Below are positions 24 to 7,132 of a stretch of DNA of 7,132 nucleotides, in pieces; within the stretch, counting starts at the first letter, position 1; every line of letters starts with the position of its first letter. The position numbers and the translations under genes are program-made. The notes under the pieces were generated by a model that saw nothing but the letters and a program-made list of their open reading frames with translations, was not told the DNA's origin and searched no databases. Origin of the DNA: Desulfofustis sp. (GTDB taxonomy: Bacteria; Desulfobacterota; Desulfobulbia; Desulfobulbales; Desulfocapsaceae). The stretch lies in NCBI GenBank assembly GCA_030604345.1, contig JAUVWB010000074.1, positions 1 to 7,132 of the forward strand. Reading direction: 5' to 3'.

Positions 24-476
24 TTATTCGCCCAAGCCCCGGGCCACCCTCTTGACAGAGCTGATCGGTTGCAGGTTGATATCGATGCCGTTACCCACCT
101 GAGGCCCGACGACGATCTTGTACATGTTCAGGTTCGGTACGGTCTGAATGACGCCGCGGGGGGTGATGACCGCGTATGAGGTGCCGTTGTTGCCGCCATT
201 GGCGGCCGAATGATGCGCCTCCAGGGCGATGGCCATCAGGTCCATGGTCGGTCCACCCTGGCCGATCCGGGTCGGCATCGGAAAGAGGTCGTCCCGATTC
301 TGGAAACGATCGTTGACCAGGGTCCCGTCGATGTGCAACCGGTTCAGCGTCTTGGCGATGGCGGCCCGGGCATGATTGAGGATCTCCCGGTAATCGCCGA
401 GCCCCTGCTCGCGGGCGGCGGTGAGGGCGGCAATCTCGGTGGCCCTGACGATCTCCATGCCGTAGTTGGTATCCAT
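24..476 (-). CDS. GlpX-like (class II FBPase N-terminal half) protein without catalytic residues
   Basis: The 150-residue product aligns with the first ~150 residues of E. coli GlpX (about 336 aa), recalled from memory. Shared landmarks are the N-terminal EIVRATEIAAL (8-18; GlpX EFSRVTESAAL), LNRLHIDGTLV (44-54; GlpX LNQVNIDGTIV) and NMYKIVVGP...GIDINL (117-135; GlpX DMYMEKLIVGP...GTIDLNL). The residues that bind metal and substrate in GlpX are missing: the Asp of the NTADGAA helix is replaced near N34-H35, GEGEIDE becomes VNDRFQN, and the DPIEGT loop becomes LEAHHSAANGG. The second half of GlpX, with its GGAPEG glutamate, is absent because TAA at 24-26 ends the frame. FBPase activity is therefore unlikely. 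A structural, regulatory or different ligand-binding role, or decay, are all possible. The gene starts 4 bp after the stop of the class III FBPase gene and has no clear Shine-Dalgarno site, suggesting translational coupling. Start M7 is an alternative. The GlpX relationship is well supported; the function is unknown. Confidence 0.75.
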   Translation of the reverse strand: MDTNYGMEIVRATEIAALTAAREQGLGDYREILNHARAAIAKTLNRLHIDGTLVNDRFQNRDDLFPMPTRIGQGGPTMDLMAIALEAHHSAANGGNNGTSYAVITPRGVIQTVPNLNMYKIVVGPQVGNGIDINLQPISSVKRVARGLGE

Positions 477-480
477 ATCA

Positions 481-2427
481 TCAATCCGTTGCGAGCGGGT
501 GCAGAAAATCGTTACCGTTGGTGGCGGCCAGCTCTTTGATGTGGCTGAGCAGGGCGTTTCGTTCCTCCTTGAGTTTTTTGCCTTCCGCGGTGTGTTTGAG
601 CTTCATCGGTTGGATGAATTCGTCGATCAATTCGATGTCGATGGGTGCCGATTCGAACTTGCGCTCAGCCTCCTTGATCTCTTCCGGAGTCGGTAGAATG
701 ATGCCGTACAGCTGATACGGCGTATGCACCAGGGAGTGACCGCGATTATAATAGGCGGCTGCGAATCCGCCGTCCACATTGATGGCGACGCCGTCATCGC
801 TGGCCATGTGCTTGCCTTTCAGGTAGTTGACCGGGGTGTGGCCGTAGACGACGCGCTTGACTCCGAATTCACTCAACAGCTTCTTTTTGAAAACAGCAGA
901 GCTCAGGTTCTGTTGCCAGTAGAGGGTCTTTTCGGTGTGTGTTTCCTTGTCCAGCAGGAAATAACGCTCGAAGGTCTTCATGGCATGTTTGCCGAAAAAC
1001 GGAGAGCGGGGCCCGCACCAGAGATAGAAAAACAGCGCCTGGTCCTTGGGGGCCTGGGGGTTCCCCTCCAGATAATTGCGGCCGACCCGACTGATGGTCG
1101 CCTGGATGAAATCAAGCAGATCACGGCCTTTGCGGCCGAGAAACTCCTCGAAGTCCCCATCGCTGGTGGAGGGGACCAGGGCATGGATGTTGAGGATATT
1201 GTTGTAGGTGGAGTAGGTCTTACCCACGGTAAACAGATAGCCGAGCAGACGCTTCAATTTCCGGTTGGTGCGGAACTGTTCGGTCAGATCGTCGATGACT
1301 TCCTGTTCTTCGTCGGTAAGCCGATGCGGGGCGTCGAGATCAAGCGTCGGGAAAAAGGTGTCATTCAGGCCCTGGGTGTCGCCGCGCTTGAGCAGGTCGG
1401 CCAGCTTATCGAGCCAGAGTCTCGAAGACATGTCGTATTCGGGGAAATCCCTGATGGTCTGTTCTTCCAGTTTGAATTGAATGATGGCCAGCGCCTTTTC
1501 CATGGCCCGACCTTTTTCGGTGCGTGCCTTGAACTTGCCGGTGACCCTGTCGGCCGGGTAGGTCCGCTCGGCAAAGGCGGCCAGTCGAGAGGCGTCGAAA
1601 TGCATCCGTTCCATGAATTCGAAATGATCGTACCGGCAGGTGATGCGGATTGCCTCGGCGATCAGTGAACGGTTGCCCGAAGCCGCGCCCATCCAGAGAA
1701 TATCATGGTTGCCCAGGACGTAGTCGACGATGCGCCGATATGGAGCGGACGACAGAAAGCGGATGATCTTGTCCGGCTGGGGCCCCCGGTCGAAGACATC
1801 CCCCAACACCTGGATGCGATCGAGCAGGACGTTGCGGATGGCAAAACAGAGATGATGGATGAGCCTGATCGAGATAACCTCCTCCTCGAAGATCGGGTCG
1901 GGCACCGGCAGACCGGCCAGCAGTCGGCCGATGGTCTCCTGGAATTCCGGCATGGTGATATCTTCCACCCGGTACCGGACGTTGGTCATCTTGTATTTGA
2001 GGATCTCGACCAGGCAGAGGATGACATCCTGCTTGTCCATGGCGCTCTCGGGATCCTCGATATAGTATTGTTTGCGGATGATTCGGGCCAGATATTGTAT
2101 TTTGTCGGGAGTGAAGGTGTTGGGCAGTGCCTCCCGGCACGTCTGGTAGAGGACGCCGAAACGACCGCGCAGGATCGACTTGAAACGGTCACCCTCCCCG
2201 TGTAGATCGCTGATCCACAAGGTGGTGGGAATGTTGGAGTTGAGCTCGGCATCCAGTTGCAGGAGCCGCTGGATCAACTCATCCAGATTGCGAGCTTTAA
2301 TCAATTCGTGATACGGCGAACCCTCCGGTCCGACCGGCTGCTTGAGCGTCGATCCCATGGCTGTCCGTGCGTGCTGATTCCGAGTCCTCATGTACCCCGA
2401 ACGGGATGATTGATAAAATTCTAGCAT
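481..2427 (-). CDS. fbp: Fructose-1,6-bisphosphatase class III
   Basis: Cytosolic gluconeogenic enzyme that hydrolyses fructose 1,6-bisphosphate to fructose 6-phosphate and phosphate. The 648-residue length matches class III FBPases (Bacillus subtilis Fbp type, about 640-670 aa). All calcineurin-like metallophosphatase motifs are present: SDLHGE (73-78), [11 protein letters not shown] (209-219), [10 protein letters not shown] (239-248), a conserved His in NIHALVP (413-419), YGHTPV (528-533) and VDGGF (551-555). Other family signatures are IQFKLE (316-321) and [14 protein letters not shown] (477-490). Nothing looks broken. The first ~35 residues are not conserved, so the start is uncertain. 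ATG 2427 is the longest; M13 (2391) and M24 (2358) are alternatives, and a promoter-like sequence overlapping the first codons favours a later one. The GlpX-like gene follows after 4 bp, probably in the same transcript. The class is typical of Firmicutes but also occurs in other anaerobes. Confidence 0.95.
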
Positions 2428-2644: not shown

Positions 2645-3586
2645 ATGAACGATCCCGAATACCGGACATGGAGCCAATGGTTTGCGGCTCGCTATTGGGT
2701 CGGCTACCTGCCGAGTTCGGCCGGGGGGCGGATTCGTTGCGCCAGGCCGATTGATCTCGAACAGGCAACGAAGGTGCTGATCTGCGTAACGGGACGGACT
2801 GAGTTTCTTGAAAAATATCTGGAGACCGCGTATGACCTGCAGAACTCCGGCTATTCGTTGGTAATCTACGACCAGAGCGGTCAAGGCGGATCAGACCGAT
2901 TGCTGGCCGACCGGGAAAAGGGGCATATCGACGATTTTTCCCTCTATGTCCGGGACCTGCGCACGGTTATCGACATCGTTGCCGGTTCGGGGAAGAAACG
3001 GCAGCTGGTGTTGCTGGGTCATTCCTTGGGGGGGGCCATTGCTTCACTTGCCTTGGCCGAGGACCCGCACCTCGCCGACGGACTGGTTTTGACGGCACCG
3101 ATGCTGCACATCAATACCGGTCCCTGGTTGCCGCCCCTGCTGGTGGAGATGGTAGTCCGTATGATCTGCCGGCTGGGAGGAGGTGAACGCTATGCCTGGG
3201 GAACGGGGCCTTTTGCCGCCGACCTATCGTTTCGTGACAACCCGCTGACCGGTGATGCACGGCGCTATGCCCGTATGCAACGGTTGATGGCTGCCGATAA
3301 TCGTCGCCTGGCCTTGGGCGGGCCAACTTTTGGCTGGCTTCGGGCCGCGTATGAGGCCATGCGGCGGACCCGCCGGGCTGCCGCCGCTATCACCTGTCCG
3401 GTTCTGTTATTGATGGGGCTGGCCGATCGCGTGGTGGGCTTGCCGGAGGTGGAAGCTTTCCACCGCGACTTGCCTGATGGCCGACTGGTTCGCTATGCCG
3501 GGGGCAGACATGAATTGCTGCTGGAGCAGGACCCTGTGCGAAACCGTGTTCTGGAGGATCTTGTTCTATTTCTGGGGTCCCTCTGA
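2645..3586 (+). CDS. pldB: PldB-like lysophospholipase / monoacylglycerol lipase family alpha/beta hydrolase
   Basis: Predicted serine hydrolase acting on lysophospholipids or monoacylglycerols, probably cytoplasmic or peripherally attached to the inner membrane, since no signal peptide or membrane helix is visible. The 313 residues follow E. coli PldB (lysophospholipase L2), recalled from memory: RTEFLEKYLETAYDL (51-65), DQSGQGGSDRLLADREKGH (76-94), the nucleophile elbow GHSLGG (Ser127), LTAPM (149-153), YAWGTGPF (183-190), GGPTFGWLR (225-233), the acid in GLADRVV (Asp261) and the catalytic His in GGRHELLLEQD (His289). The triad is complete. ATG 2645 is preceded closely by AGAGGAG (2636-2642). 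The gene is divergent from fbp and followed by the leader region of ilvBN; it appears to be a single-gene unit. Family assignment is firm; the exact lipid substrate is not, because this family includes monoglyceride lipases. Confidence 0.87.
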   Translation: MNDPEYRTWSQWFAARYWVGYLPSSAGGRIRCARPIDLEQATKVLICVTGRTEFLEKYLETAYDLQNSGYSLVIYDQSGQGGSDRLLADREKGHIDDFSLYVRDLRTVIDIVAGSGKKRQLVLLGHSLGGAIASLALAEDPHLADGLVLTAPMLHINTGPWLPPLLVEMVVRMICRLGGGERYAWGTGPFAADLSFRDNPLTGDARRYARMQRLMAADNRRLALGGPTFGWLRAAYEAMRRTRRAAAAITCPVLLLMGLADRVVGLPEVEAFHRDLPDGRLVRYAGGRHELLLEQDPVRNRVLEDLVLFLGSL

Positions 3587-3672: not shown

Positions 3673-3701
3673 TTGACAGCGCTCCTTCCTTCTGTTACTT
3701 G
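3673..3701 (+). promoter_or_regulatory. Candidate promoter of the ilv leader-ilvBN operon
   Basis: A perfect -35 hexamer TTGACA (3673-3678) is followed after 17 bp by TACTTG (3696-3701), a poor -10 box preceded by TG plus one base (3693-3695), which could compensate as an extended -10. Predicted initiation near 3708 would leave a 5' leader of about 38 bases before the leader-peptide ATG at 3746, a sensible geometry for an attenuated operon. The -35 is convincing, the -10 is not. Confidence 0.45.
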
Positions 3702-3745
3702 CTTTTTTCAGAGAGTCATACCATTCCCTGAACGGACGTTAACGC

Positions 3746-3874
3746 ATGTCCCACGCAATCACCGCAACTGCACCGCACCTGACCGTTACGACCGGCACTC
3801 TGAACGCCGGTCTCCTCGGACTGGTTGGTGTGCTCGTGCTTGTGGTGATTGTGTCGGTGTGCCCGGCGCCGTAA
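3746..3874 (+). CDS. ivbL: ilvBN operon leader peptide (IvbL-like)
   Basis: A 42-codon frame from ATG 3746 to TAA 3872-3874, in a different frame from ilvB. The peptide has 8 Val, 7 Leu and 2 Ile. Residues 23-38 contain 13 branched-chain residues out of 16, ending VLVLVVIVSVCPAP. E. coli IvbL, recalled from memory, has the same plan: an LNA-x-LL segment (here TLNAGLL, 18-24), then a Val-rich run, then a short xAP C-terminus. The frame ends directly before a terminator whose 5' arm can pair with the last three leader codons. Its inferred role is to sense charged Val/Leu tRNA: stalling on the Val/Leu run would permit read-through into ilvBN, while completion would cause termination. The ribosome site is weak (GGA at 3734-3736, 9 bases before the ATG). 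Gene callers usually miss it because of its length. Confidence 0.82.
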   Translation: MSHAITATAPHLTVTTGTLNAGLLGLVGVLVLVVIVSVCPAP

Positions 3875-3913
3875 GGGATAGCGATCATCAGTATCGACCC
3901 CCGTCGGCGCCGG
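3863..3913 (+). promoter_or_regulatory. Transcription attenuator: antiterminator pairing
   Basis: CCGGCGCCG (3863-3871, the last three sense codons of the leader peptide) is perfectly complementary over 9 bases to CGGCGCCGG (3905-3913), which is part of the 5' arm, loop and first 3'-arm base of the terminator. The two structures exclude each other. A ribosome at the leader stop codon (3872) would cover the first segment and favour the terminator; one stalled on earlier Val/Leu codons would leave it free. CGCCGG at 3805-3810 can pair over 6 bases with 3863-3868 and may be the protector segment. Folding was done by eye. Confidence 0.7.
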
Positions 3914-3929
3914 CCGGCGGGGGTTTTTT
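3898..3929 (+). terminator. Intrinsic terminator of the ilvBN attenuator
   Basis: The left arm 3898-3908 (CCCCCGTCGGC) and right arm 3913-3923 (GCCGGCGGGGG) form an 11-bp stem with one G-U pair and a GCCG loop, followed immediately by six T (3924-3929). It sits 24 bp after the leader-peptide stop and 52 bp before ilvB, so it must be conditional rather than an operon end. The hairpin is directly visible; its attenuator role follows from the leader peptide and the competing pairing. Confidence 0.88.
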
Positions 3930-3969
3930 GTTGCTCCCGCCCCGTCTCCGACACAGAACTCATCGAGAC

Positions 3970-3978
3970 AGGAGGAGG
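3970..3978 (+). promoter_or_regulatory. Ribosome binding site that fixes the ilvB start
   Basis: AGGAGGAGG at 3970-3978 lies 3-6 bases before ATG 3982. The ilvB reading frame stays open upstream for another ~300 bases, through the promoter, leader and terminator. This strong site and the first aligned residues of the family (MGHLTGAQ, compare RFTGAE in E. coli IlvB) place the true start at 3982. Confidence 0.85.
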
Positions 3979-3981
3979 AAC

Positions 3982-5673
3982 ATGGGACATCTCACCGGCG
4001 CGCAGCTTACCATCAGACTGCTGGCCAAGCAGGGCATCACCACCATAACCGGGATACCGGGCGGCTCGATTCTGCCGCTCTACGACGCGTTGTACCGAGA
4101 AAATACGATCAAGCACGTGTTGGCCCGGCACGAGCAGGGGGCCGGTTTCATCGCCCAGGGCATGGCCCGTTCCAGCGGCCGGCCGGCGGTCTGCTTCGCC
4201 ACTTCGGGGCCGGGAGCCACCAATATCGTCACCGCCATGGCCGATGCCTATCTCGATTCCATCCCGGTGATCTTCATCACCGGTCAGGTGCCGTTGTCGA
4301 TGATCGGCACCGACGCCTTTCAGGAGGTAGACGTCTACGGCTTGAGCATCCCCATCACCAAACACAACTATCTGGTGCGCTCGGCCGCAGAACTGCTCGA
4401 GGTGATCCCCGAGGCGTTTCAATTGGCGGTGACCGGTCGACCGGGACCGATCCTCATCGATATCCCCAAAGACGTGCAGAACGAGTTGATCCGTTGCGAC
4501 GATCCGCTGCCCGGCCCTCTGGCGCCGCCGGCACAACCGCCGTTTGCCCAGGCGCAGTTGGACCGGGCGGTGGCCATGATCGAAGGGGCCAGACAGCCGG
4601 TGCTCTACCTCGGGGGCGGCGTCATCCATGCCGGTGCCGGAGAACTGGCCCGCGCCTTTGCCGAAAAAGCGGGGTTGCCGACCACCATGACCTTGCTCGG
4701 CCTTGGGGTCATTCCCCCGGAACACCCCCTCTATCTGGGCATGCTCGGGATGCATGCGGCCCGGGCCACCAACCTGGCGATCAACGAATGCGATCTGCTG
4801 ATCGGCGTCGGCGTCCGTTTCGACGATCGGGCCACCGGCAAGATCGCCGAGTTCTGCCCCCAGGCCAAGATCATCCACATCGATATCGATCCGTGCGAGA
4901 TCAGCAAGTTGAAACCGTCCAACCTCGCTTTTGTCGGCGATGTCAAGACCTCGCTGCAGGCGTTACTGCCGTTGATCACCCCCAACCCTCGCCGGCAGTG
5001 GCTGCGCAAAGTGACCATGCTGCGCTCCCGGTATCCGCTCTTTTGTTCGGAACAGCTCGATTTCAATCGACCCTACGGCATCATCCTGCGGATTGCCGAG
5101 ATCATCGGTGACGAAGCCATCGTCACCACCGACGTGGGCAAGCACCAGATGTGGACGGCGCAAATCTATCCGTTCAGCCGTCCCCGCCAGCTGCTCACTT
5201 CCGGTGGGTTGGGAACCATGGGATTCGGCCTGCCGGCGGCCATCGGTGCGGCATTGGAGCATCCGGACCGGCCGGTGGTCTGTTTCACCGGTGACGGCAG
5301 CATCCTGATGAACATCCAGGAGTTGGCCACGGTGGTGGAACAGCGGGCCAACGTGAAAATCATTCTGCTCAACAATCGCTCACTGGGCCTGGTCCGTCAG
5401 CAACAGCGGCTCTTTTACGGCGGCAATCTGATGGCCTCGGTGTTCGAGCACAACGTCGATTACCCGACCATTGCCCGCGGCTTCGGCCTCGAGTCATACG
5501 CTGTGGAGGACCCGGCGGAGCTGGACTCGGTCCTGCTGACCGCACTGCATCAGCCCGGACCCTGTCTGATCAATATCCCGATCGGCATGGACGAGGACGT
5601 TTACCCGATGGTCCCTCCGGGGGCCGCCAACTCAACGATGATAGGAGACCCCCATGTACCTGAATGCGCCTGA
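3982..5673 (+). CDS. ilvB: Acetolactate synthase large (catalytic) subunit
   Basis: ThDP-, FAD- and Mg-dependent enzyme that condenses two pyruvates to 2-acetolactate (valine/leucine branch) or pyruvate with 2-oxobutyrate (isoleucine branch); cytosolic, working with IlvN. The 563 residues match E. coli IlvB (about 562). Seen in order: GIPGGSILPLYDAL (24-37), catalytic Glu51 in ARHEQGAGFIAQGMAR (48-63), SGPGATN (75-81), GTDAFQEVD (109-117), PITKHNYLVR (124-133), the central FAD-domain motif YLGGGVI (209-215), GVRFDDRATG (277-286), TTDVGKHQMWTAQ (382-394), TSGGLGTMGFGLPAAIGAAL (406-425), and the ThDP/Mg motif GDGS (437-440) to NN (464-465). The C-terminus YPMVPPGAANSTMIG resembles IlvB rather than IlvI. 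It lies downstream of the IvbL-like attenuator and overlaps ilvN by 20 bp. Nothing is broken. Confidence 0.96.
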   Translation: MGHLTGAQLTIRLLAKQGITTITGIPGGSILPLYDALYRENTIKHVLARHEQGAGFIAQGMARSSGRPAVCFATSGPGATNIVTAMADAYLDSIPVIFITGQVPLSMIGTDAFQEVDVYGLSIPITKHNYLVRSAAELLEVIPEAFQLAVTGRPGPILIDIPKDVQNELIRCDDPLPGPLAPPAQPPFAQAQLDRAVAMIEGARQPVLYLGGGVIHAGAGELARAFAEKAGLPTTMTLLGLGVIPPEHPLYLGMLGMHAARATNLAINECDLLIGVGVRFDDRATGKIAEFCPQAKIIHIDIDPCEISKLKPSNLAFVGDVKTSLQALLPLITPNPRRQWLRKVTMLRSRYPLFCSEQLDFNRPYGIILRIAEIIGDEAIVTTDVGKHQMWTAQIYPFSRPRQLLTSGGLGTMGFGLPAAIGAALEHPDRPVVCFTGDGSILMNIQELATVVEQRANVKIILLNNRSLGLVRQQQRLFYGGNLMASVFEHNVDYPTIARGFGLESYAVEDPAELDSVLLTALHQPGPCLINIPIGMDEDVYPMVPPGAANSTMIGDPHVPECA

Positions 5674-5971
5674 CACGGAGCCGGCGGCAACGGCAACGGT
5701 AACCGTCCTGGAACTACTGGTGAAGAATCATCCGGGGGTGATGACCCATGTCTGCAGCCTGTTTTCTCGACGGGCCTACAACCTAGAAGGCATAGCCGTC
5801 CTGCCGGTGGGTGATGGCGCCATGAGCCGAATCTGGCTCAAGGTGGTGGAGGAGACCCGCCTGGAGCAGATCGTCAAACAGGTGGAGAAGTTGCACGACG
5901 TCAAGCGTGTCACCCGGCATGGCAACAGTCATCCGGTCTTCACCGGCATGGCCGAGCACTTTCAACCCTGA
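5654..5971 (+). CDS. ilvN: Acetolactate synthase small (regulatory) subunit, IlvN type
   Basis: ACT-domain subunit that activates IlvB and usually confers valine feedback inhibition. At 105 residues it is of the short IlvN class (E. coli 96 aa), not the ~160-residue IlvH class. The ACT core NHPGVMTHVCSLFSRRAYNLEGI, given here in two pieces, comprises NHPGVMTHVCSLF (25-37) and SRRAYNLEGI (38-47), with the conserved Gly28 and Asn43 region where valine binds in ACT dimers. It is followed by RIWLKV (59-64) and RLEQIVKQVEKLHDV (69-83), closely parallel to E. coli IlvN (SHIWLLV, RLEQMISQIDKLEDV; from memory). The start at 5654 lies inside the end of ilvB, with AGGAGA (5643-5648) just upstream, so expression is coupled to ilvB. 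Residues 1-15 are a nonconserved tail. Valine sensitivity is inferred from the family. Confidence 0.95.
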   Translation: MYLNAPDTEPAATATVTVLELLVKNHPGVMTHVCSLFSRRAYNLEGIAVLPVGDGAMSRIWLKVVEETRLEQIVKQVEKLHDVKRVTRHGNSHPVFTGMAEHFQP

Positions 5972-5980
5972 ACCAGCATC

Positions 5981-6019
5981 GCCCGAGGTGGAACCTTCAG
6001 TTTCGGCTCCGCTTCGGGC
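5981..6019. repeat. Inverted repeat at the ilvN / TRAP permease convergent junction
   Basis: Arms 5981-5995 and 6005-6019 can pair over 15 positions with one mismatch and two G-U pairs on the plus-strand transcript, with a 9-base loop. The repeat begins 10 bases after the ilvN stop and runs into the last codons of the opposing permease gene (stop at 5997-5999). No T-run follows on either strand, so it is not a standard intrinsic terminator, but it may stabilise or end the ilvBN transcript. Confidence 0.4.
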
Positions 6020-7132
6020 GCACGTTGTAGATGACAGTCACCATCAGCGCGGTGGCGGCCCCTATCTGGATCAAGACCGTCGAGGGCATGATCAGGAAAA
6101 ACGCCATAACCAATAGCAGGAAACGGGCGGGCATACCGATGTGATTCTCCATGTGGCCTTGCAGCGCGCAGGTGAAGGCGTACATGCCGAGCAGGGCGAA
6201 GAAGCTGACGCTCAGGATGGCCGGCCAGCTGCCGCCAAGGATCGGCGTGTAGGCGAAGAGCAGGGGCACGAGATAGAGTCCCTTGGCAATTTTCCAGGAT
6301 TGCAGGCCGGTGGACATGGGCGGCGTACCGGCGATGGCGGCACCGGTAAAGGCGGCCAGGCAGACCGGCGGGGTGACGTTGGAGTCTTGGCTCAGCCAGA
6401 AGATGATCATATGCGCCGAGAGGGTGGCGAACATGCTCGTCTGCGGCGACAGCGCCATCTCCCGGACAGTGCCCAGCAGATCGTGGGGAACGGCGGCGAG
6501 GATATGGCGGGCCTGGTCGAGGTCCAGCTGCTGGTTGAGAAGATGCAGTTGGTCTGGAATGGCGATCATCAGTACTGCTTTGGCCTCTTCGGACAAGGCA
6601 CCGGCAGCAATGATCTCGACGATCTTCGCATCGGCGATGAGGTTGTACAAGGCCGGAGCGGAGAGCGTGCCGAGTACGATATAGGCGGCGGTGACCGGCA
6701 GACCCATGCCGAGTACCAGCGAGGCCAGCGCGATCAGCGTGATGGCGATGATCAGGCTGTCACCAGACCAGTTGGTGATCATCAACGAAAAGGTGTTGCC
6801 GATGCCGGTGGTAGCGATGACATTGACCACCAGACCGACGCTGCAGAGCAGGACGGCGGTCATCACCATATTACGCGCGCCGAGTGCCAGGGCTTCGGCG
6901 ATGGCGCGAAATCCCATGCGGTTCGGGGTCAGCCATGACGAAATGATCACTGCGACGATGCTGATGCCGGCTGCATAGGTCGGCGTATAACCATAGATCA
7001 GCAAGCCGATCAGCACCGAGATCGGCAGTAGAAACGGCAGACCGCCGGTCTTGATCACCTCCAGCACTTTCAGGTCCTCGTCGTCAGCGGCCTTGAGGCC
7101 GATCCGTTTGGCCTCTACCCGCACGAAAAAGC
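5997..7132 (-). CDS. TRAP transporter fused permease (DctQM-type), C-terminal part
   Basis: The reading frame stays open to the right window edge, so only the last ~378 codons are seen. GTG 7122-7124 is an internal Val, since the upstream codons (FFV) continue the protein. Inner-membrane permease of a TRAP carrier, driving Na+- or H+-coupled uptake of a small organic anion delivered by a periplasmic binding protein; fused permeases usually pair with TAXI-type binding proteins. Counted from GTG 7124: hydrophobic segments near 28-46, 50-66, 86-107, 123-160, 232-247, 251-266, 283-299, 302-320 and 333-366. Family motifs are VLGMGLPVTAAYIVLGTLSAPAL (137-159, as VLGMGLPVTAAYIV and LGTLSAPAL), SQDSNVTPPVCLAAF (245-259) and AGTPPMSTGLQSWKIAKGL (265-283). 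About 65 mostly polar residues (162-230) separate the first two motifs. The substrate cannot be told, and no binding-protein gene is visible here. Confidence 0.88.
   Translation of the reverse strand, partial: FFVRVEAKRIGLKAADDEDLKVLEVIKTGGLPFLLPISVLIGLLIYGYTPTYAAGISIVAVIISSWLTPNRMGFRAIAEALALGARNMVMTAVLLCSVGLVVNVIATTGIGNTFSLMITNWSGDSLIIAITLIALASLVLGMGLPVTAAYIVLGTLSAPALYNLIADAKIVEIIAAGALSEEAKAVLMIAIPDQLHLLNQQLDLDQARHILAAVPHDLLGTVREMALSPQTSMFATLSAHMIIFWLSQDSNVTPPVCLAAFTGAAIAGTPPMSTGLQSWKIAKGLYLVPLLFAYTPILGGSWPAILSVSFFALLGMYAFTCALQGHMENHIGMPARFLLLVMAFFLIMPSTVLIQIGAATALMVTVIYNVRPKRSRN

What the first reader, a model, noticed from the sequence alone, without database searches (positions are those of the whole stretch)
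3746..3929. Complete IvbL-type attenuator before ilvBN
Seen directly: a 42-codon leader with 13 of 16 consecutive Val/Leu/Ile residues (23-38), a terminator with an 11-bp stem and T6 only 24 bp after its stop, and a 9-base perfect competing pairing between the leader's last codons (3863-3871) and the terminator (3905-3913). Known: E. coli ilvBN is controlled by the ivbL leader in this way. If the host is a deltaproteobacterium, as the neighbours suggest, this extends the mechanism outside its classical gammaproteobacterial setting. The peptide also shares the LNA-x-LL segment and the AP ending with IvbL, suggesting descent rather than convergence.
Basis: partly seen in the sequence, partly recalled or inferred. 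Interest (0 to 1): 0.72.

Follow-up and report, generated by a model that had tools for sequence, protein, structure and literature searches.

The report
Valine-sensing RNA switch before ilvBN
A relative of the sulfur-cycle bacterium Desulfofustis most likely controls a valine-making enzyme with the same kind of ribosome-stalling RNA switch known from E. coli, and the switch stands before nearly all of the related genes examined in distant bacteria.

Summary
In detail: a 42-codon ORF with 13/16 Val/Leu/Ile, a -29 kcal/mol terminator and a 9-nt perfect pairing between them, before an E. coli-type ilvBN. The host is a close relative of Desulfofustis limnaeus.
Comparison shows it is real. One automatic criterion finds leader plus terminator before 124 of 128 type-I ilvB genes (one hit, L076, is a T-box; one, L078, is doubtful), 0 of 16 second acetolactate synthases and 8 of 1960 control windows. 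Hits lie in Desulfobulbia, Beta- and Gammaproteobacteria, Verrucomicrobiota and one Latescibacterota assembly.
The terminator covaries clearly. Five core antiterminator pairs are kept in 41 of 41 Desulfobulbia, with some compensatory changes.
Best explanation: ribosome-mediated transcription attenuation of ilvBN by charged Val/Leu-tRNA.
Descent is supported instead by the RNA and the IlvB tree, where Enterobacterales are a nested branch and Desulfobulbia a separate one.
New member of a known kind. No expression data exist here.

The parts
3673..3701 (+). predicted promoter: TTGACA, 17 nt, TACTTG preceded by TG
   Evidence: inferred. Best -35-like box (at least 5/6 of TTGACA) lies 62-90 nt before the leader start in 33 of 41 Desulfobulbia; exact TTGACA within 110 nt in 11 of 41 Desulfobulbia and 7 of 10 Verrucomicrobiota but only 3 of 68 other loci, against 1.8% in shuffles. 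The -10 is weak and the generic promoter scan found nothing
3746..3874 (+). leader peptide ORF, 42 codons
   Evidence: against L081 residues 29-42 are unchanged (1 synonymous change), residues 1-28 hold 6 replacements and 4 synonymous changes
3812..3859 (+). regulatory Val/Leu/Ile codons 23-38 (13 of 16)
   Evidence: Val-rich run in a similar place before the stop in relatives, with varying synonymous Val codons
3863..3877 (+). antiterminator 5' strand: last three codons (3863-3871), unpaired stop codon, GGG (3875-3877)
3896..3929 (+). intrinsic terminator (stem 3896-3925, T-run 3924-3929); 3900-3902 and 3905-3913 are the antiterminator 3' strand
3970..3979 (+). Shine-Dalgarno-like AGGAGGAGGA of ilvB
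   Evidence: read directly
3982..5673 (+). ilvB, acetolactate synthase large subunit, E. coli IlvB type (NF006016, 880.9 bits, cut-off 870)
   Evidence: that NF006016/PRK08155 is the E. coli IlvB type is recalled
5654..5971 (+). ilvN, small subunit, E. coli IlvN type (NF006036, 129.5 bits, cut-off 128), overlapping the end of ilvB
   Evidence: that NF006036/PRK08178 is the E. coli IlvN type is recalled

Best explanation
A ribosome-mediated transcription attenuator of the ivbL kind. RNA polymerase starts near 3708 and a ribosome follows on the leader. If charged Val-tRNA (and Leu-tRNA) is plentiful, the ribosome reaches the stop codon and covers 3863-3871; the terminator at 3896-3929 forms and transcription stops after about 220 nt. 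If these tRNAs are short, the ribosome stalls in the Val/Leu codons, leaving 3863-3877 free to pair with 3900-3913 before the 3' arm of the terminator is made; the terminator cannot form and ilvBN is transcribed. Shown here: the parts, their energies, their conservation and covariation. Inferred: start site, stalling, regulation in the cell. What happens without any translation is not settled by the folding. The element was most likely inherited together with the type-I ilvBN genes.
For: Leader plus terminator before 124 of 128 type-I ilvB genes (L076 among them is a T-box; L078 doubtful), 0 of 16 second AHAS genes, 8 of 1960 control windows. Terminator: 99.1% of cells paired in 41 rows, 5 pairs changed on both sides, 0 of 500 shuffles as high. 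Antiterminator: 86.7% of cells paired against 41.3-58.5% when slid, 17 cells changed on both sides (0 of 500 shuffles), five core pairs kept in 41 of 41. Compensatory cases: GGTGCC/GGCACC (L086), AGTGCC/GGCACT (L092), GCACCG/CGGTGC (L129), GTGCCG/CGGCAC (L004). Folding: with 3848 onwards free, antiterminator -24.8 before the 3' arm exists; with the leader end covered, only -5.6 before it and terminator -29.1 after it. IlvB tree: 42 Desulfobulbia rows one clade (SH-aLRT 99), Enterobacterales grouped with betaproteobacteria (99).
Against: No transcript or reporter data. At equilibrium the terminator beats the antiterminator (-41.9 against -36.2 for 3848-3930), so the switch must be kinetic. For a transcript without ribosome the prediction is mixed: the leader end is paired with 3733-3740 up to 3908, with the terminator arm at 3912-3920, and with 3733-3740 again in the full RNA where the terminator forms. 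No strong Shine-Dalgarno sequence before the leader ATG. Two antiterminator measures do not exceed shuffles (pairs with both sides changed 245/500, further pair types 260/500); RNAalifold finds only the terminator. Shuffled-leader test: p<=0.05 in only 64 of 119 loci, and it fails for Escherichia L067 too; own pairing is no better than the mean swap in 22 of 119, and L045 pairs poorly. The promoter box is not shared by most beta/gamma loci. No Rfam family reaches its gathering score.
Confidence: 0.92

Rival explanations
1. The leader acts mainly at translation level or as a peptide, and the hairpin is an ordinary terminator or processing site.
For: The leader ends 107 nt before ilvB, so other effects on expression are possible.
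Against: Outside the Val run and the last codons the peptide varies strongly among relatives, Val codons vary synonymously, and the constraint lies in Val identity plus RNA pairing. ilvB has its own strong ribosome-binding sequence.
Confidence: 0.04
2. Same mechanism, but convergent: ilvBN leaders arose independently in Desulfobulbia and Enterobacterales.
For: Leader peptides differ outside the Val run and the last codons; several Verrucomicrobiota use other antiterminator sequences; Corynebacterium has its own ilvB leader (PMC10272879, passages seen).
Against: Desulfobulbia, betaproteobacteria and Enterobacterales share a terminator core around CGGCGC, in most the same antiterminator register at the last codons, and closely related IlvB; presence in 124 of 128 (one a T-box, one doubtful) is most simply one origin.
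Confidence: 0.12
3. Chance ORF next to a terminator of the upstream alpha/beta hydrolase gene.
For: The hydrolase gene ends at 3586 on the same strand.
Against: 0 of 1000 shuffles; conserved before type-I ilvB and not before the second AHAS; 309 nt separate the hydrolase stop from the hairpin.
Confidence: 0.01

Closest known systems
ivbL-ilvBN attenuator of Escherichia coli and relatives
   Same: Val-rich leader, last codons pairing with the 5' arm and loop of a GC-rich terminator, stop codon at the bulge, same type of IlvB and IlvN. The peptide of L067/L073 is IvbL by recall; its length of 32 agrees with PMC6123439 (passage).
   Different: Window leader has 42 rather than 32 residues, more Leu and Ile, lacks the Arg inside the Val run, and has a longer antiterminator (9 + 3 pairs against 7 + 3 in L067)
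ilvBNC leader (ilvB-II uORF) of Corynebacterium
   Same: BCAA-rich upstream ORF, terminator and antiterminator before ilvB (PMC10272879, PMC11109978: passages seen)
   Different: Other operon (ilvBNC) and other phylum; no sequence comparison was made here
T-box leader
   Same: Stands before the same type of ilvB in Clostridium prolinivorans L076
   Different: Binds uncharged tRNA directly, no leader peptide (recalled)

Membership tests
ribosome-mediated transcription attenuator of the ivbL-ilvBN kind | short leader ORF rich in codons of the operon's product amino acids | tested here: met
   13 of 16 Val/Leu/Ile; 0 of 1000 shuffles
ribosome-mediated transcription attenuator of the ivbL-ilvBN kind | intrinsic terminator between leader and first gene | tested here: met
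ribosome-mediated transcription attenuator of the ivbL-ilvBN kind | alternative antiterminator using a strand that a ribosome at the stop codon would cover | tested here: met
   two of five covariation measures do not exceed shuffles
ribosome-mediated transcription attenuator of the ivbL-ilvBN kind | precedes E. coli-type ilvB and ilvN | tested here: met
   NF006016 and NF006036 above cut-off
ribosome-mediated transcription attenuator of the ivbL-ilvBN kind | promoter upstream of the leader | tested here: inconclusive
   TTGAC[AG]-like box shared in Desulfobulbia and Verrucomicrobiota but weak -10; generic scan negative
ribosome-mediated transcription attenuator of the ivbL-ilvBN kind | terminator wins when the leader is not translated | tested here: inconclusive
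   full-length fold favours the terminator, intermediate lengths favour the antiterminator
ribosome-mediated transcription attenuator of the ivbL-ilvBN kind | read-through rises when Val/Leu-tRNA charging falls | not testable with these tools
   needs RNA or reporter data
homology with E. coli ivbL through the peptide (LNA-x-LL) | LNA-x-LL segment conserved in relatives | tested here: not met
   3 of 127 leaders: the window and two Escherichia loci
T-box or riboswitch (Rfam) | match to a known covariance model | tested here: not met
   no match at gathering score in the window; four matches far below their gathering scores, best E 0.25

The most novel reading that the evidence does not exclude
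The E. coli ivbL attenuator is a late twig of an old, phylum-crossing regulatory cassette: leader, terminator and ilvBN have been inherited and probably transferred together among Pseudomonadota, Desulfobacterota, Verrucomicrobiota and perhaps Latescibacterota. The last leader codons are dual-purpose, fixed by antiterminator pairing more than by the peptide, and co-evolve with the terminator loop; in Clostridium the sensor was exchanged for a T-box.
Probability: 0.6. Interest if true: 0.5.

Novelty: new member of a known kind. Interest (0 to 1): 0.42.

Why it matters
It gives ilvBN attenuation a far wider range than its textbook case and a comparative set (over 120 loci) in which the antiterminator can be seen changing together with leader codons. 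The family lacks an Rfam model and could be given one. It predicts valine/leucine control of a second acetolactate synthase in sulfur-cycle bacteria and some Verrucomicrobiota.

Tried and rejected
Rfam at gathering and relaxed thresholds: nothing usable. Pfam and NCBIfam on the leader peptide: none. The first terminator finder missed most Enterobacterales, whose stems hold a bulge; the RNAfold-based finder and the combined one replaced it. One search read loci fetched on the minus strand unreversed; corrected. In one search the threshold misses L090 (6 rather than 7 of 16) and L062 (start choice), both visible. One control region (L132) was placed 10 nt too far upstream, which also spoiled it as a tree outgroup; 4 of 8 prepared outgroups were used. 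The second-AHAS control looks at 420 nt before each gene only; a leader further up in an operon would be missed. Shuffled-leader pairing has little power on GC-rich loops: it fails for Escherichia loci too. Its 119 loci leave out 9 of 128 (L031, L035, L036, L040, L062, L071, L076, L078, L099), for which the finder gave no terminator or a wrong or doubtful leader-terminator pair. 'Type I' means here an IlvB at least 54% identical to the window's (second copies: 40-48%); NF006016 was run on the window only. Literature: the listings shown by searches (10-20 papers each, the longest of 423) named no paper on ilvBN leaders in Desulfobulbia or Verrucomicrobiota, but Vitreschak 2004 and Lopatovskaya 2010, the surveys most likely to, were seen only as references, so priority is not claimed. 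PMC8632094 (passages) has an 'ilvB motif' of Leptospira, a riboswitch candidate; it was not compared. Considered and rejected: the leader as a functional peptide, and a chance ORF.

Full report
What is in the sequence. Downstream lie ilvB and ilvN, both above the cut-offs of NCBIfam equivalogs NF006016 and NF006036, the E. coli IlvB and IlvN types by recall.

Host. No genome is held for the window. Its IlvN is 94% identical to a protein named for Desulfofustis limnaeus, longest contig 4,232,141 bases; genome G122 has a contig of the same length, a 98% identical IlvB and 93.6% DNA identity over 6477 aligned bases. That G122 is D. limnaeus is inferred from this equality. The class name Desulfobulbia is recalled; the tools give Desulfobulbaceae and Desulfocapsaceae, Thermodesulfobacteriota, for named members.

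Distribution. In the class of L001, 41 of 257 genomes have a match at E <= 1e-180; in the phylum of the Opitutia locus L075, 10 of 288; in the phylum of the Latescibacterota locus L037, 1 of 64, which is L037's own genome. One automatic test for a V/L/I-rich ORF followed by a strong terminator is met by 40 of 42 Desulfobulbia (window included), 28 of 28 loci filed as Enterobacterales, 10 of 10 Verrucomicrobiota and 46 of 48 others: 124 of 128. Controls: 0 of 16 upstream regions of the second, 40-48% identical AHAS in the same genomes, and 8 of 1960 windows elsewhere in the loci. Of the four misses, L099 has 56 nt of upstream sequence, L090 and L062 show leader and hairpin on inspection, and L071 shows neither. 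Among the hits, Clostridium L076 is false: its upstream region is a T-box. The spirochaete L078 is doubtful.

Antiterminator. In 41 Desulfobulbia rows (window included, L099 left out) the terminator pairs in 99.1% of cells with 5 doubly changed pairs. The antiterminator pairs in 86.7% of cells against 41.3-58.5% for slid versions; 17 cells are changed on both sides, above all 500 shuffles, but the number of such pairs (3) and of pair types is not above shuffles. Five core pairs (columns 10-14 with 64-68) are kept in all 41 rows; the next pair outward is GC in 16, AU in 13, CG in 1 and broken in 11; the pair next to the stop codon is broken in 21. The helix skips the stop codon and usually continues with a CGGG or GGG that follows it. 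Other clades keep the logic with other letters, for example L129 (GCACCG with CGGTGC), L075 and L037 (CGGCAGCGGG with CCCGCTGTCG). Own pairing beats the mean of swapped partners in 97 of 119 loci.

Why the AP ending. The leader ends GCG-CCG because these bases pair with CGGCGC of the terminator. Of 41 Desulfobulbia leaders 31 end in AP (some plus one residue) and 10 in VP; of the VP rows, 8 keep the pair as U-G and 2 (L086, L092) as U-A through a change in the terminator. LNA-x-LL occurs in 3 of 127 leaders. Between the window and L081, residues 29-42 are unchanged while the first 28 hold six replacements. Thus the RNA and the Val run are under constraint and the N-terminal peptide sequence is not, or much less.

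Mechanism. With 3848 onwards free, folding gives -24.8 kcal/mol for the antiterminator before the terminator's 3' arm exists; with the leader end covered, only -5.6 before that arm and -29.1 for the terminator after it. The Val codons at 3824-3847 lie far enough upstream for a stalled ribosome to leave 3863 onwards free (footprint size recalled). For a transcript without ribosome the folds disagree: leader end paired with 3733-3740 up to 3908, with the terminator arm at 3912-3920, with 3733-3740 again at full length, where the terminator forms. So super-attenuation without translation is not predicted with confidence. A -35-like box lies 62-90 nt before the leader in 33 of 41 Desulfobulbia; in the window TTGACA at 3673 would start RNA near 3708 (inferred). 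Most beta/gamma loci lack an exact TTGACA there (3 of 68 have it).

Evolution. In a quick IlvB tree of 89 rows (85 of 128 loci, 4 outgroups) the Desulfobulbia form one clade (SH-aLRT 99), while Enterobacterales group with Zoogloeaceae and kin (99); Verrucomicrobiota fall in more than one place and part of the backbone is unresolved. The tree gives no sign that Desulfobulbia got the system from Enterobacterales. Seven of seven Desulfobulbia genomes checked also hold a second AHAS, without such a leader. One old cassette inherited and transferred with its genes is the simplest reading; direction and number of transfers are not resolved, and L076 and L078 may join by long branches.

Literature. 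[quoted passage not shown] Passages of PMC2965389 place leader peptides in Proteobacteria, Actinobacteria and, newly, Firmicutes. The Corynebacterium ilvB uORF is described in PMC10272879 and PMC11109978 (passages). The element is therefore a new member of a known kind.

Noticed in passing
window 24-476 (minus): A glpX-like ORF stops after 150 residues, about half the family length, and DNA identity with D. limnaeus breaks off near window base 40, beyond which the frame stays open in D. limnaeus; probably a rearrangement or assembly edge.
   Followed up: partly
window 481-2427 (minus): A gene of the 'Firmicute' fructose-1,6-bisphosphatase family (PF06874) stands directly beside the glpX-like gene.
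   Followed up: no
L076 3177-3440: Clostridium prolinivorans has a T-box before the same type of ilvB: a sensor exchange.
   Followed up: partly
L078, within about 400 nt upstream of ilvB: Spirochaete locus with two successive hairpins with T-runs and a short Val-rich GTG ORF; may be a tandem or decayed attenuator.
   Followed up: no
L060: Record labelled Chryseobacterium carries an enterobacterial ilvB with an IvbL-like leader, placed beside Escherichia in the tree; probably a mislabelled or contaminated assembly. It is counted among the 28 Enterobacterales loci.
   Followed up: no
Desulfobulbia leaders (41): CTA makes up 13% of leader Leu codons against 1% in ilvB, as if slow codons were favoured.
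   Followed up: no
window 3842-3859: Many relatives have an Arg codon inside or just after the Val run (VVVVVR, VVVVRVVVVV); the window, L081 and L082 lack it. Its role is unknown.
   Followed up: no
window 5997-7130 (minus): A gene resembling fused TRAP transporter permeases (TIGR02123, below its cut-off, runs off the window) converges on ilvBN.
   Followed up: no
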